Source of the DNA: Paenibacillus lupini
Lineage (GTDB): Bacteria; Bacillota; Bacilli; Paenibacillales; Paenibacillaceae
Length of the DNA stretch: 64,000 bases
Assembly (NCBI RefSeq): GCF_011761355.1
Contig: NZ_JAASRW010000009.1
Span: 124,001-188,000 of the forward strand
Direction: 5' to 3'
Below, one piece after another: positions 47,098 through 52,239 of this stretch. The notes under the pieces are model-generated. The model searched no databases, was not told the DNA's origin, and saw nothing but the letters and a program-made list of their open reading frames with translations. Numbering within the stretch: the stretch's first letter is position 1; the number at the start of each line of letters is the position of its first letter. The position numbers and the translations under genes are program-made.

Positions 47098-48375
47098 TTA
47101 AATGTGCAGACGACCAATCCCGTTCATATATTTGCGCAGGGCTTGTGGAATGCGGATCGAGCCATCTTCCTCCTGGTGGTTCTCCAGTAGTGGGATTAGA
47201 ATCCGCGGCGAAGCTACAGCTGTATTGTTGAGGGTGTAGCAGAATCGTGTTTTACCCTCCGCATCCCGATACCTAATGTTCGAACGACGCGCTTGGAAAT
47301 CGAGAAGATTGGACGACGAATGCGTCTCCCCATAGGCGTTTCGGCTAGGCATCCAAGTCTCGATGTCGAGCTGTTTATAGGTTTTTTGCGACATATCTCC
47401 CGTACAGACGGCCATTACGCGATAGGGAAGCTCAAGCAGCTGCAATAGCTCTTCCGCATTCGCTGTAATCTCTTGAAAAACTTGCTCCGACTTCTCCAGG
47501 CTGCCTTCACAAATAATAACCTGCTCCACTTTCGAGAACTGGTGAACCCGATACAAACCATGTACATCTCTCCCCGCCGAACCTATTTCGTTACGGAAAC
47601 AGGTCGAGACAGCGGCAAGCCGGATTGGCTCGGTTACATCCACAATTTCATTATCGTAGTACGAGATTAATGGTACTTCCGAAGTGCCAACAAGCCATTT
47701 ATTCTCATCAGCTATACGGAAGGTTTGCTCCTCGCCTAGCGGGAAGAATCCTGTATTATACAAGGTTTCTTGCCGCACCATTAAAGGAACCTCGAGCAGG
47801 TTGAAGCCTTTTGCTGTGAGCAAGTCTACGGCTAGCTGCTGTACCGCACGATGCAAGGCAGCTCCCGTACCCGTCAAATAATAGTTGCGGCTTCCGGCCG
47901 TTTTTACTCCGCGAGGGATATCGATCATCCGGTGAAGCTCACCCAGCGTTACATGATCTTTGGGCTCAAAGGTGAAGCTAATTGGCTCTCCGAACCGTTT
48001 TACTTCTACATTATCTTGATCCGAAAGGCCGATTGGCGTGTCAGGCGAGACGATGTTTGGAACATACAAGAGGAGATTCGTGTATTGCTGATGGACTTCT
48101 TTGTGTTCATTTTCTAACGTGCTGATATGCTTATTCATTTCCTTCATATGAAGCTTCTTATGTTCAATGTGATTAAGGTCATTGTTGCGAATGAGATGGT
48201 TAATCTCTTCAATGGTCTGATTCCGTTCCTGGCGAAGCTGTTCAATCTCCTGCAGTATCGCTCTTCTCTTATCATCCCAGTCTATTAACTCCGAGATTGA
48301 AATGGTGATACCTTTCTGATTGGCTGTGGTCTGAATAAGCTCTTGATTTTGTCTAATCCATTTGATGTCTAACAT
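47098..48375 (-). CDS. serS: Seryl-tRNA synthetase
   Basis: A 425-residue class II synthetase of standard length. The N-terminal long antiparallel coiled coil (residues about 30-100) binds the tRNA variable arm. Class II motif 2 is FRNEIGSAGRDVHGLYRVHQ and motif 3 is at the C-terminus (CYTLNNTAVASPRILIPLLE). It attaches serine to tRNA-Ser. AAAGGAG precedes the ATG. The gene is regulated by a T-box leader at 48405-48597, sensing uncharged tRNA-Ser. It is the only informational gene of its region. Confidence 0.97.
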   Translation of the reverse strand: MLDIKWIRQNQELIQTTANQKGITISISELIDWDDKRRAILQEIEQLRQERNQTIEEINHLIRNNDLNHIEHKKLHMKEMNKHISTLENEHKEVHQQYTNLLLYVPNIVSPDTPIGLSDQDNVEVKRFGEPISFTFEPKDHVTLGELHRMIDIPRGVKTAGSRNYYLTGTGAALHRAVQQLAVDLLTAKGFNLLEVPLMVRQETLYNTGFFPLGEEQTFRIADENKWLVGTSEVPLISYYDNEIVDVTEPIRLAAVSTCFRNEIGSAGRDVHGLYRVHQFSKVEQVIICEGSLEKSEQVFQEITANAEELLQLLELPYRVMAVCTGDMSQKTYKQLDIETWMPSRNAYGETHSSSNLLDFQARRSNIRYRDAEGKTRFCYTLNNTAVASPRILIPLLENHQEEDGSIRIPQALRKYMNGIGRLHI

Positions 48376-49149: not shown

Positions 49150-49263
49150 TTATGCGGCCACCTATCCTAGTTCGATCATCATTAATAGTTTTATATTACC
49201 ATCTTCGTGGAAGAAGGGTATTACTGTGATAGCTGGATACGGCAGTTGTTTATGGAGATTAAT

Positions 49264-49293
49264 TTGTAATTTTTTCTAATTTTATGATACAAT
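49264..49293 (+). promoter_or_regulatory. Extended -10 promoter for the RHH/DnaN operon
   Basis: TTGTAA (49264-49269) and TACAAT (49288-49293) are spaced by 18, with a TGA just before the -10 as an extended element. The surrounding DNA is strongly AT rich. The start codon follows 57 bases later. Confidence 0.6.
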
Positions 49294-49350
49294 TAAATTA
49301 CGTATTTTGATTAAAGTTACCTAAATCAATTAACAGGAGATACTATCGAG

Positions 49351-49584
49351 ATGAGTAATCATGAAATTAAAATTGGTGTTTCCAATAAAGATGGACAGTT
49401 GGGGTTTATATCAGCGAGAGGTGGTTTAAGGAAAGGAGCAGGCAGAAGAAATATAGGGGTGACCAAAAAGGTTTCCTTAACTCTTACCGAAGAAATATGG
49501 GACAAAGTAGAGAAGCAGTGTCAGGAACAACAGCTGTCGCGCTCTGAGGTTATCCGTAACATCATTAATTCCTATTATTCATAA
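49351..49584 (+). CDS. Ribbon-helix-helix (CopG/Arc-like) DNA-binding protein
   Basis: A 77-residue protein. A flexible, basic N-terminal half contains GGLRKGAGRRN. The C-terminal 45 residues fit one RHH unit: strand KKVSLTLTEEIWDKVEKQCQ followed by helix B SRSEVIRNIINSYY. The GGxRKGAGR element before RHH domains is common in plasmid- and phage-related regulators. It binds DNA as a dimer. AACAGGAG precedes the ATG. It is the first gene of a run ending at 52239 and may control its own operon. Confidence 0.82.
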   Translation: MSNHEIKIGVSNKDGQLGFISARGGLRKGAGRRNIGVTKKVSLTLTEEIWDKVEKQCQEQQLSRSEVIRNIINSYYS

Positions 49585-49609
49585 TTGCCCTCGAAGGCAG
49601 GTGAAGGTT

Positions 49610-50761
49610 ATGCGGTTGGAGATTACAAAGGACTCCCTTATAGACGCAATTCAGCATGTGCTAAAAGCGGTATCAACGAATAATCCTATCGCCATATTAA
49701 CGGGAATACATATAGAGGCAACCACAAAAGGGCTGATTGTGACAGCCAGTAATTCAAGTATGAAGATTCAATATACAATTGCTCAAGATGATCGTTGTAT
49801 GAAGGTGCAAAGAGCAGGCGGGATCGTTGTTCCGGCGCGGTATTTTCATGAGGTCATCCGTAAACTTGATGCGGGAGCTATTACAATAGAACAGTTGGAG
49901 CCGTTCATTCTTACGATTGTGTCTGGTCATTCCCGGATTCGACTAAGCGGAATGGATCCAGCAGAATTTCCAGTTACAACAACATCGAGCACTTCTTTGT
50001 TGAAGTTAAGTGTAAACAATGCCACACTGAAGACATCCATCAAGCAGGTAGCTGCTGCTGCCTCTACCTCGGAGACTCGTCCTGTATTAACGGGTATTCA
50101 TTTGGTATGTCAAAATGAATGGCTTAGTCTGGCTGCTACAGATGGAATCCGTCTTGCCTCTTTTTCTATACCAATGGACAGACAGGCTGACCTCGATGCT
50201 GATATCATCATTCCCAGTAGGAATTTAATGGAGGTTGCCAGACTATTGGATGAGGAGACTGCCAGAACGGAGATAGAAATTGGTCACCATTACATATGCT
50301 TTCGAGTAGGCCAAGTTCAGCTCCAATCCGTATTACTTGAGGGCGTTTATCCGCTTATAAAAAATTTCATTCCCACCTCTTATTTGACAGAGATTGTTGT
50401 GGATACATCTTTATTCCTTCGTGCCGTGGAGCGGGCAACGGTATTTGCGAGTGAAAGTGTAATCCGAATTGCGGCTGCTGCCAATCAATTAGACCTACTA
50501 TCTAGAACAGCCGAAATAGGAGAGGTTCATGAGGCAATACCTTTACAGCAAATAAGTGGTGATCCTTTCGAGATCGCAGTTAACGGTAAATTTCTTATCG
50601 ACCTCCTTCGTTTTATGGACAGCGGGTATCTTCGTTTGCGATTTACCGGACAACGTAGTCCAATCATGATCCATCCAGCAGACGATTGGTCTTCTGCCCT
50701 ATTTCTAATTACGCCTGTGAGAACTACAGGTCAAGGAGTGACAACGAATGAGCGAGCATGA
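49610..50761 (+). CDS. DNA polymerase III beta-subunit (sliding clamp) paralogue
   Basis: A 383-residue full-length clamp with three similar domains. The first begins MRLEITKDSLIDAIQHVLKA and has ILTGIHIEA; the second begins at about 125 with RPVLTGIHLVC; the third ends FLITPVRT, close to the usual clamp C-terminus. A 12-residue tail follows. The dnaA-dnaN-recF neighbourhood is absent, so this is not the replication-origin copy and must be a second clamp. ATG 49610 follows AGGTGAAGG. It overlaps the acetyltransferase gene by 14 bases. A role in repair or in an exchange polymerase is possible; the sequence does not say which. Confidence 0.85.
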   Translation: MRLEITKDSLIDAIQHVLKAVSTNNPIAILTGIHIEATTKGLIVTASNSSMKIQYTIAQDDRCMKVQRAGGIVVPARYFHEVIRKLDAGAITIEQLEPFILTIVSGHSRIRLSGMDPAEFPVTTTSSTSLLKLSVNNATLKTSIKQVAAAASTSETRPVLTGIHLVCQNEWLSLAATDGIRLASFSIPMDRQADLDADIIIPSRNLMEVARLLDEETARTEIEIGHHYICFRVGQVQLQSVLLEGVYPLIKNFIPTSYLTEIVVDTSLFLRAVERATVFASESVIRIAAAANQLDLLSRTAEIGEVHEAIPLQQISGDPFEIAVNGKFLIDLLRFMDSGYLRLRFTGQRSPIMIHPADDWSSALFLITPVRTTGQGVTTNERA

Positions 50762-51560
50762 CATTATCAATAGAACAGAACTGCCTGTTACGGTAAGCGG
50801 CATGGTTCACGACCTCAAACGGTTAGGCATACAAGAAGGCGATCATGTGCTTGTTCATTCCTCTTTGTCCAGTATTGGGTGGGTGTGCGGTGGTCCTCAA
50901 GCCGTTATCCAAGCACTCTTACAGTCAATTGGGGATGCTGGAACGCTGGTCATGCCAGCGCAATGCGGGGATTGGAGCGATCCCGCTGAATGGGGGAATC
51001 CTCCTGTTCCTCAGGAATGGATCGATATTATATATAAAGAAATGCCAGCCTTTGATGCAAAGGTTACTCCTACACGGGGGATGGGAAAGATTGCAGAGCT
51101 GTTCCGGACTTATCAGGGAACACTGCGCTCTAATCATCCGCAGGTTTCATTTTGCGCTAATGGCCGGCATGCCTCGTATATCGTGGCAGACCATCCATTA
51201 ACCCCGCAGTTTGGTGAGGATTCGCCGCTGGGTAAGCTTTACGCTGCAGATGCAAAAGTGCTGCTGCTTGGAGCTGGCTTCGATTCCTGTACGAGCCTTC
51301 ATCTTGCTGAGACGAGGCTTCAAGGGATGCCAACCAAAAAGATGGGCGCAGCGATGATGGTGAATGGTCGGCGTTCGTGGAAATGGTTTATGGATTATGC
51401 CTACAGCTCTGATGATTTTGAAGAGCTCGGAAGGCATTTTGCGGGTGAAGGCACGGTCACCATCGGTCGAGTTGGCCAAGCGGAAAGTATACTGCTTGAT
51501 ATGAAGGAAGCCGTTGATTATGCAGGCGAGTGGCTGGCCAAGCGTCGTTATTATTCTTAA
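50748..51560 (+). CDS. AAC(3)-family N-acetyltransferase (YokD-like)
   Basis: A 270-residue protein of the antibiotic N-acetyltransferase type. Family landmarks are VHSSLSSIGWVCGGPQAVIQ, GTLVMPAQCGDWSDP, RGMGKIAELFR, the RSNHPQVSFCANG segment and the histidine region TSLHLAETR. These enzymes transfer acetyl from acetyl-CoA to the 3-amino group of aminoglycosides or to related amines; chromosomal relatives often have other substrates. It is translationally coupled to the clamp paralogue by a 14-base overlap, which is an odd pairing. Confidence 0.88.
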   Translation: MSEHDIINRTELPVTVSGMVHDLKRLGIQEGDHVLVHSSLSSIGWVCGGPQAVIQALLQSIGDAGTLVMPAQCGDWSDPAEWGNPPVPQEWIDIIYKEMPAFDAKVTPTRGMGKIAELFRTYQGTLRSNHPQVSFCANGRHASYIVADHPLTPQFGEDSPLGKLYAADAKVLLLGAGFDSCTSLHLAETRLQGMPTKKMGAAMMVNGRRSWKWFMDYAYSSDDFEELGRHFAGEGTVTIGRVGQAESILLDMKEAVDYAGEWLAKRRYYS

Positions 51561-51588
51561 TCCTTATACGAAAGTGGAGTTGAGGAGT

Positions 51589-52239
51589 TTGATAGAGCGA
51601 TTCATGTATAGAGCAGTGTGGAAAGAAGAGCAGGCAGTTGAAGGTCTGCGGGCATTGAAGCTCGACAAACAGGCCGTCAGTCTGGTTAAGCATGGTCGAT
51701 TAATGACAGCAGCAGCGTTTCATTGGAACAATAATGTTTTCCTCTACTACGAGTGTATGGATGGATCCGTCCAGCCCGAAGAGCTCGCAAGTGCGGCCAT
51801 GCCGTATTTGAAGGATTGGCCAGGGCAAAAGGAGCCGCGGCAATGGATCCGTATGGTCGATGTATTCCACTTTAATGAACCGGCGAGCGTCGAGCACTGG
51901 CAACGTAGACATCAAGTGGAGAGACGAGTCGGCAGGGTCGCACATTTGAAGCCGGAGATGGTCAGCAGCTACATTTACTACCATTATCAGCTCCAGGAGG
52001 AGCGGGCTTTCTTCGGCCCTAAATATGAGATCATCGGCATGCATGAGAATCTTCTGTTCGGCTATCAGGAGTTCCCGAATGTGACAGAAGAACCCGTCGT
52101 ACCAGGGCGTCTTCAAACGAAAGGGACACCCGAGAATTGGAGCGATTCGCGGATGGATCTTCATTTTCAGCCGTGGGAAGACGGGCATCTCTACTTTAAG
52201 CCTATTGAGCAGATTTATGCTTATTATCTAGGAACTTGA
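51589..52239 (+). CDS. Unrecognised protein, possibly rhamnose-mutarotase-like at the C-terminus
   Basis: About 216 residues. I do not recognise the N-terminal 100 residues. The segment RVGRVAHLKPEMVSSYIYYH and, later, YEIIGMHENLLFGYQEF resemble the strand-helix and strand patterns of L-rhamnose mutarotase (RhaM) in the ferredoxin-like dimeric fold; this is weak. The start is unclear: TTG 51589, GTG 51574 and ATG 51604 are all in frame, with GAGGAG nearby. It follows the acetyltransferase by 28 bases and ends 16 bases before the convergent gerC-like gene. No catalytic role is assigned. Confidence 0.55.
   Translation: MIERFMYRAVWKEEQAVEGLRALKLDKQAVSLVKHGRLMTAAAFHWNNNVFLYYECMDGSVQPEELASAAMPYLKDWPGQKEPRQWIRMVDVFHFNEPASVEHWQRRHQVERRVGRVAHLKPEMVSSYIYYHYQLQEERAFFGPKYEIIGMHENLLFGYQEFPNVTEEPVVPGRLQTKGTPENWSDSRMDLHFQPWEDGHLYFKPIEQIYAYYLGT

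What the first reader, a model, noticed from the sequence alone, without database searches (positions are those of the whole stretch)
49351..52239. Second DnaN sliding clamp in an operon with an RHH protein and an AAC(3)-like acetyltransferase
The clamp paralogue is full length, with three domains and overlapped coding with the acetyltransferase. A GGxRKGAGR-type RHH protein precedes it. Known: some Bacillales carry more than one dnaN; the function of the extras is unclear. Inference: an accessory replication or repair clamp whose operon may also carry self-regulation and a drug or metabolite acetyltransferase. The AT-rich extended -10 promoter and RHH type hint at mobile or plasmid ancestry.
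Basis: partly seen in the sequence, partly recalled or inferred. Interest (0 to 1): 0.6.

Follow-up and report, generated by a model that had tools for sequence, protein, structure and literature searches.

The report
Sliding clamp with clamp-binding repressor
About a quarter of sampled Paenibacillaceae genomes, this one included, carry a compact two-gene unit: a second, fast-evolving DNA sliding clamp paired with a small DNA-binding regulator that has one operator in the genome (its own) and what looks like a clamp-binding tail, which suggests a dedicated and so far undescribed feedback control of a spare replication clamp.

Summary
In detail: a full-length DnaN paralogue (49610-50761; 35% identical to the dnaA-linked dnaN 164 kb away) follows an RHH gene and overlaps an AAC(3)-like gene. 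The interpretation needs redrawing. The unit is the RHH-dnaN2 pair, found in 98 of 396 Paenibacillaceae genomes in varied neighbourhoods. The acetyltransferase is an older resident: relative G007 has the locus without the pair. Three features are new here. (1) A 23-bp palindromic operator (49307-49329) just after the -10 precedes 78 of 79 loci examined and has no other close match in 30 genomes searched: a dedicated autoregulator, probably. (2) The RHH N-terminal arm carries Q-[LVMI]-x-[FMIL]-x-[FYS] in 97 of 97 readable arms, the form of a bacterial clamp-binding motif; 13 armless RHH homologues have neither motif nor clamp. (3) The clamp evolves about ten times faster than the housekeeping clamp, yet its cleft is selectively conserved. 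Best model: an autorepressor that docks on its own clamp and sets its supply. Docking is inferred; fold predictions did not confirm it. The purpose (spare clamp against clamp inhibitors, or toxin-antitoxin-like) is open.

The parts
49264..49293 (+). promoter: -35 TTGTAA, 18-nt spacer, extended -10 TATG-A-TACAAT
   Evidence: similar TTGTAA/TTGCCA and TATGATAAAAT-type elements recur upstream of homologous operons
49307..49329 (+). operator: 23-bp quasi-palindrome TTGATTAAAGTTACCTAAATCAA
   Evidence: upstream of 78 of 79 arm-RHH genes examined; all 30 genomes searched carry it upstream of this operon; the six further hits were 2-mismatch sites, at the level of the reversed-pattern control
49351..49584 (+). 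RHH regulator, 77 aa: N-terminal arm (1-22), GGxRxGAGR-type basic segment, ribbon-helix-helix (about 38-77)
49396..49413 (+). clamp-binding-motif-like hexapeptide QLGFIS (RHH residues 16-21)
   Evidence: Q 97/97, position 2 L/V/M/I 97/97, position 4 F/M/I/L 97/97, position 6 F/Y/L 83/97; absent from 13 armless homologues
49610..50761 (+). dnaN2, second sliding clamp, 383 aa (GTG 49601 possible alternative start)
49204..50747 (+). stretch absent from the same locus of relative G007 (40 other nt there): the cassette
50748..51560 (+). AAC(3)/YokD-like acetyltransferase; older resident of the locus, now behind the cassette
51589..52239 (+). conserved gene of unknown function, next to the acetyltransferase in relatives too

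Best explanation
The RHH-dnaN2 pair is a self-contained, horizontally spread cassette for a second sliding clamp under dedicated feedback control. Indicated by sequence: (a) dnaN2 encodes a complete clamp fold with a conserved protein-binding cleft and is under purifying, though relaxed, selection; (b) the RHH gene precedes it in nearly all homologous loci; (c) a conserved palindrome sits just after the promoter and is essentially unique in the genome, so the RHH most likely represses only this operon. Inferred: (d) the RHH N-terminal arm docks through its Q-L-x-hydrophobic-x-hydrophobic motif in the cleft of DnaN2 (possibly also DnaN1); an RHH dimer offers two arms to the two clefts of a clamp ring; (e) this makes repression depend on how much clamp is free or how occupied its cleft is, so that clamp is made when clefts are blocked or clamp is short; (f) DnaN2 then stands in for, or competes with, the housekeeping clamp. 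My estimates: autoregulation 0.9; RHH-clamp docking 0.7; use as a conditional spare clamp 0.4.
For: Pairing: of 98 arm-type RHH loci, 88 have an intact clamp beside them, 7 a disrupted one, 3 none (with L259 and L273 re-read); 13 of 13 short RHH homologues lack both clamp and motif. The roughly 70 paralogue matches that outscore the first main clamp lie next to RHH matches. Motif; L259 has ENQLAMLY in place of EGQLGF; CBM consensus QL[S/D]LF or QxxLF, with QLSLPL a tight binder in E. coli, from PMC12309361. Operator. Cleft: mean entropy of 15 cleft columns 0.77 bits against 1.94 for random columns of the paralogues (none of 20,000 draws as low). Selection: dN/dS 0.14-0.34 for clamp2, 0-0.02 for the main clamp. 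Co-inheritance: RHH and clamp2 distances correlate at rho 0.74, clamp2 with main clamp only 0.28; partial correlation 0.74. Single origin: 88 paralogues form one clade, support 0.66. Empty site.
Against: Two AlphaFold2 read-through fusions of RHH and clamp gave a confident clamp (pLDDT about 90) but an arm at pLDDT about 36-50, with two short strands that could be a hairpin; docking is not predicted with confidence. Covariation between arm and cleft was not above expectation. Gly at motif position 3 and Phe at 4 are not the canonical S/D and L; Gly at 3 weakens binding in E. coli (PMC12309361). The pair is not obligate: 7 disrupted clamps, 3 RHH without clamp, and two intact clamps with a broken RHH (frameshift in G183, mobile-element insertion in G347). 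No expression or binding data.
Confidence: 0.6

Rival explanations
1. Toxin-antitoxin-like module: the RHH is the antitoxin (upstream gene, autoregulation through a palindrome, an arm that plugs its partner) and DnaN2 the effector that disturbs replication when freed, by competing with the housekeeping clamp.
For: Gene order and autoregulated palindrome as in RHH-antitoxin modules; patchy, mobile, fast-evolving pair; regulator kept while the clamp is disrupted in 7 loci and gone in 3. Other TA systems act on the clamp: RipAB targets the DnaN pocket (PMC12795458).
Against: In those systems the toxin is a clamp ligand, not a clamp. Purifying selection on the whole clamp fits a working clamp at least as well. 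Two intact clamps lack an intact RHH (G183, G347).
Confidence: 0.2
2. Bypass clamp: DnaN2 is a variant clamp that resists clamp-directed antibiotics, phage proteins or toxins and takes over when DnaN1 is blocked, like GriR/MypR. This is one possible purpose of the feedback module above.
For: Second clamps MypR/GriR are put forward as self-resistance in mycoplanecin/griselimycin producers (PMC10817943). DnaN2 clefts differ consistently from the main clamp: E. coli position H175 is V/I in 73 of 73, M362 mostly T, M364 mostly V or I; pneumococcal H183, which I map to H175 through the HRL motif, is a RipA-suppressor site. Fast evolution fits conflict.
Against: No recurrent neighbour gene, so no sign of a biosynthetic cluster, in the loci compared. 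Cleft changes may instead fit the RHH arm. No drug data.
Confidence: 0.25
3. Ordinary accessory repair or replication clamp behind an ordinary autorepressor; the arm is a structural hairpin or DNA-contacting element and does not touch the clamp.
For: Fold models show two short strands in the arm. A conserved Q could sit in a turn.
Against: Armless homologues lack the motif and the clamp (13/13). The GQ pair persists through strong divergence, and one exception keeps Q-L-A-M-L-Y without the G. Related RHH genes have the same kind of operator without this arm, so the arm does not seem needed for operator recognition. No LexA-like box.
Confidence: 0.2

Closest known systems
DnaN beta sliding clamp (TIGR00663; B. 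subtilis 4TR6)
   Same: three domains, clamp fold over the full length (homologue model, TM-score about 0.93 by target length), conserved protein-binding cleft
   Different: 35% identical to the genome's own dnaN, about ten-fold higher dN/dS, altered cleft residues, own RHH partner, outside the dnaA-dnaN region, patchy
GriR/MypR self-resistance clamps (PMC10817943)
   Same: second dnaN outside the origin region
   Different: no biosynthetic cluster seen; RHH partner and operator; resistance untested
RHH/CopG autorepressors and RHH antitoxins
   Same: small RHH upstream of its partner gene, palindromic operator at the promoter
   Different: N-terminal clamp-binding-like arm; partner is a sliding clamp
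Clamp-targeting TA systems SocAB and RipAB (PMC12795458)
   Same: a small locus that acts on the clamp
   Different: there the toxin binds the host clamp; here a clamp itself is encoded
phrog_35980 and related phage/plasmid-like RHH proteins
   Same: GGKREGAGRK..TRKVSLTL-type RHH with the same operator upstream
   Different: no QLxPhixPhi arm in those examined; some genes contain arrays of the operator

Membership tests
DnaN sliding clamp | TIGR00663 above cutoff and three Pfam domains | tested here: met
DnaN sliding clamp | conserved protein-binding cleft | tested here: met
   P242, the S346 position (P) and N320 invariant; L155, T172, R176, L177, P363 in over 80%; R365 in 53/73
DnaN sliding clamp | ring dimer loaded on DNA | not testable with these tools
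   DNA-facing positions partly changed (R24 mostly N; R73, R80, K198 mostly basic)
RHH (CopG/Arc) DNA-binding proteins | RHH_1 profile above gathering score | tested here: met
Clamp-binding motif proteins | QL[S/D]LF- or QLxPhixPhi-type peptide, conserved | tested here: met
   form only, Gly common at position 3, and the window's own copy ends in S (QLGFIS)
Clamp-binding motif proteins | physical binding in the cleft | tested here: inconclusive
   arm not placed with confidence; no covariation
Type II toxin-antitoxin | DNA-binding antitoxin gene next to toxin, autoregulated operator | tested here: met
   (architecture only; binding not tested)
Type II toxin-antitoxin | toxic second gene, neutralised by the first | not testable with these tools
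   needs expression assay; RHH broken with clamp intact in G183 and G347 argues against strong toxicity
GriR/MypR resistance clamps | lies in a clamp-inhibitor biosynthetic cluster | tested here: inconclusive
   no recurrent neighbours; genomes not mined for clusters
SOS/LexA regulon | LexA box upstream | tested here: not met
   none in the 200 nt upstream
AAC(3) aminoglycoside acetyltransferase | NF033082 equivalog cutoff 270 bits | tested here: not met
   209.5 bits; Antibiotic_NAT superfamily member only

The most novel reading that the evidence does not exclude
A mobile regulatory or conflict module in which an RHH repressor reads the occupancy of a sliding-clamp cleft with its own clamp-binding arm and releases an alternative clamp when host clamps are blocked by a phage protein, toxin or antibiotic, or acts as antitoxin to that clamp.
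Probability: 0.3. Interest if true: 0.88.

Novelty: new variant of a known kind. Interest (0 to 1): 0.62.

Why it matters
Second dnaN genes are known but mostly unexplained. Here the second clamp comes with a dedicated partner and one operator, which makes its function testable with two proteins and one 23-bp DNA. If the arm binds the cleft, this would be a transcription factor controlled directly by sliding-clamp availability, and a candidate natural sensor of, or resistance route to, clamp-directed inhibitors. My searches of the open-access library found no description of the pairing.

Tried and rejected
Acetyltransferase as part of the system: rejected, not linked to the pair elsewhere in the genus and older at the locus. 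Conserved third gene: none among 39 compared loci, only shared neighbourhoods of close relatives and large families. SOS control: no LexA-like box. Known anti-phage defence: no PADLOC match. Phage or plasmid copies of this RHH by tblastn: none; viral contigs yielded armless relatives. Arm-type RHH outside the family: none among the other-family matches in a class sample of 399 genomes. Arm docking by AlphaFold2 fusion: inconclusive. Arm-cleft covariation: no signal above expectation.

Full report
What is there. The window holds, in order on the + strand, an RHH gene (49351-49584), a full-length dnaN paralogue (49610-50761), an AAC(3)/YokD-like acetyltransferase (50748-51560) and a conserved gene without a family match (51589-52239). 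The genome has exactly two dnaN; the other lies at C9:8630-9772(-) between ORFs that read as DnaA and RecF, about 164 kb away, and is 35% identical.

The unit is a pair. In the genus (51 genomes) 17 other loci carry the paralogue with the same RHH gene directly upstream, -3 to +24 nt apart; flanking genes are shared only between close relatives, and the acetyltransferase is never there. In the family (396 genomes) I collected 98 arm-type RHH loci, one per genome: 88 with an intact clamp beside them, 7 with a disrupted clamp, 3 with none. A further class of RHH homologues, without the arm, was checked in 13 genomes: none is next to a clamp. In a class sample of 399 genomes, matches in other families covered only the RHH core and the GG segment, not the arm, and had no adjacent clamp. 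The 88 paralogues form one clade, support 0.66, apart from the main clamps.

A dedicated operator. Aligning upstream regions showed a 23-bp palindrome, consensus TTGAWTWWRGTWACYWWAWTCAA, in 78 of 79 loci examined; the exception, G347, has a mobile-element insertion there. In the window it lies 13 nt after the -10 hexamer and before the ribosome-binding site. A search of 30 genomes allowing two mismatches found the operon's site in each; six further hits, all with two mismatches, are at the level of the reversed-pattern control, so I treat them as chance. In the window it is the only match at up to three mismatches, expected 0.02. The RHH thus looks like a dedicated autoregulator; binding itself was not tested. 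Related armless RHH genes on phage- or plasmid-like contigs carry the same operator, some in arrays inside the coding sequence, which points to the origin of the DNA-binding half.

A clamp-binding-like arm. The RHH arm carries a hexapeptide with Q at position 1 in 97 of 97 readable arms, L/V/M/I at 2, F/M/I/L at 4, F/Y/L at 6 in 83 (mostly S in the rest). Frequent forms are QLGFVF, QLGFLF and QLSMMF; the window's own is QLGFIS. Bacterial clamp-binding motifs follow QL[S/D]LF or QxxLF, and QLSLPL is a tight binder in E. coli (PMC12309361). A short motif of this kind can arise by chance; its constancy together with the clamp, and its absence from the armless homologues, is the argument. Not confirmed: two AlphaFold2 predictions on read-through RHH-clamp fusions of relatives gave a confident clamp but an arm at low confidence, and covariation analysis gave no arm-cleft signal.

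The clamp is used and is changing fast. Across close pairs dN/dS is 0.14-0.34 for dnaN2 and 0-0.02 for the main dnaN; G030 and G040 share 99% of the main clamp but 69% of DnaN2 in the same neighbourhood. Yet cleft columns are far more conserved than the rest (0.77 against 1.94 bits). Consistent differences from the main cleft exist: position H175 is V/I in all 73 sequences, M362 mostly T, M364 mostly V. One of these, H175, corresponds by the HRL motif (my mapping) to pneumococcal H183, where a change suppresses the clamp-targeting toxin RipA (PMC12795458); this is a lead, not a test.

Mobility. RHH and clamp2 distances track each other (rho 0.74) and follow the main clamp weakly (0.28-0.36). 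In relative G007 the flanking genes are joined with 40 nt in place of window 49204-50747. Gain here is more likely than loss there, since the pair sits elsewhere in other species, but one empty site does not prove direction. No transposase is part of the pair. The clamp frame now runs into the acetyltransferase start, so the overlap looks like a by-product of insertion.

Judgement. I favour a feedback-controlled spare clamp. The sign of the feedback and the trigger are open. Toxin-antitoxin and inhibitor-bypass readings remain live; the plain accessory-clamp reading leaves the arm unexplained. Literature searches in the open library found no description of the pair, which is weak evidence of novelty because most subscription papers are missing.

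Noticed in passing
L085-L087 (viral/plasmid-like contigs), L202 and L205 (loci of other families in the class): RHH genes whose own coding sequence contains arrays of the same 23-bp operator-like site (up to 8 near-matches at a locus), read as NQNQ- or NLIQ-type peptide repeats; looks like an iteron or centromere-like array inside the regulator gene.
   Followed up: partly
L141-L153: Armless RHH homologues in Paenibacillaceae, several with a diverged upstream palindrome of the TTGATTaAGGTAGCATAAATTGA kind, so a sister regulator with shifted specificity; regulon unknown.
   Followed up: partly
upstream of the acetyltransferase in L276/L305 (G010) and L278/L307 (G009): Other sequence, in L307 a different short gene, sits at the site that carries the RHH-dnaN2 pair in the window, so the spot may be an insertion hotspot.
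   Followed up: no
L273 (G347): TnpB-like mobile element sequence ends inside the RHH gene and removes the arm; the clamp is intact.
   Followed up: partly
L049 (G025), L050 (G015): Another, distant type of second dnaN (24-26% identical) without the RHH partner.
   Followed up: no
window 47098-48375: Seryl-tRNA synthetase gene beside the cassette; whether it is the only copy in the genome was not checked.
   Followed up: no
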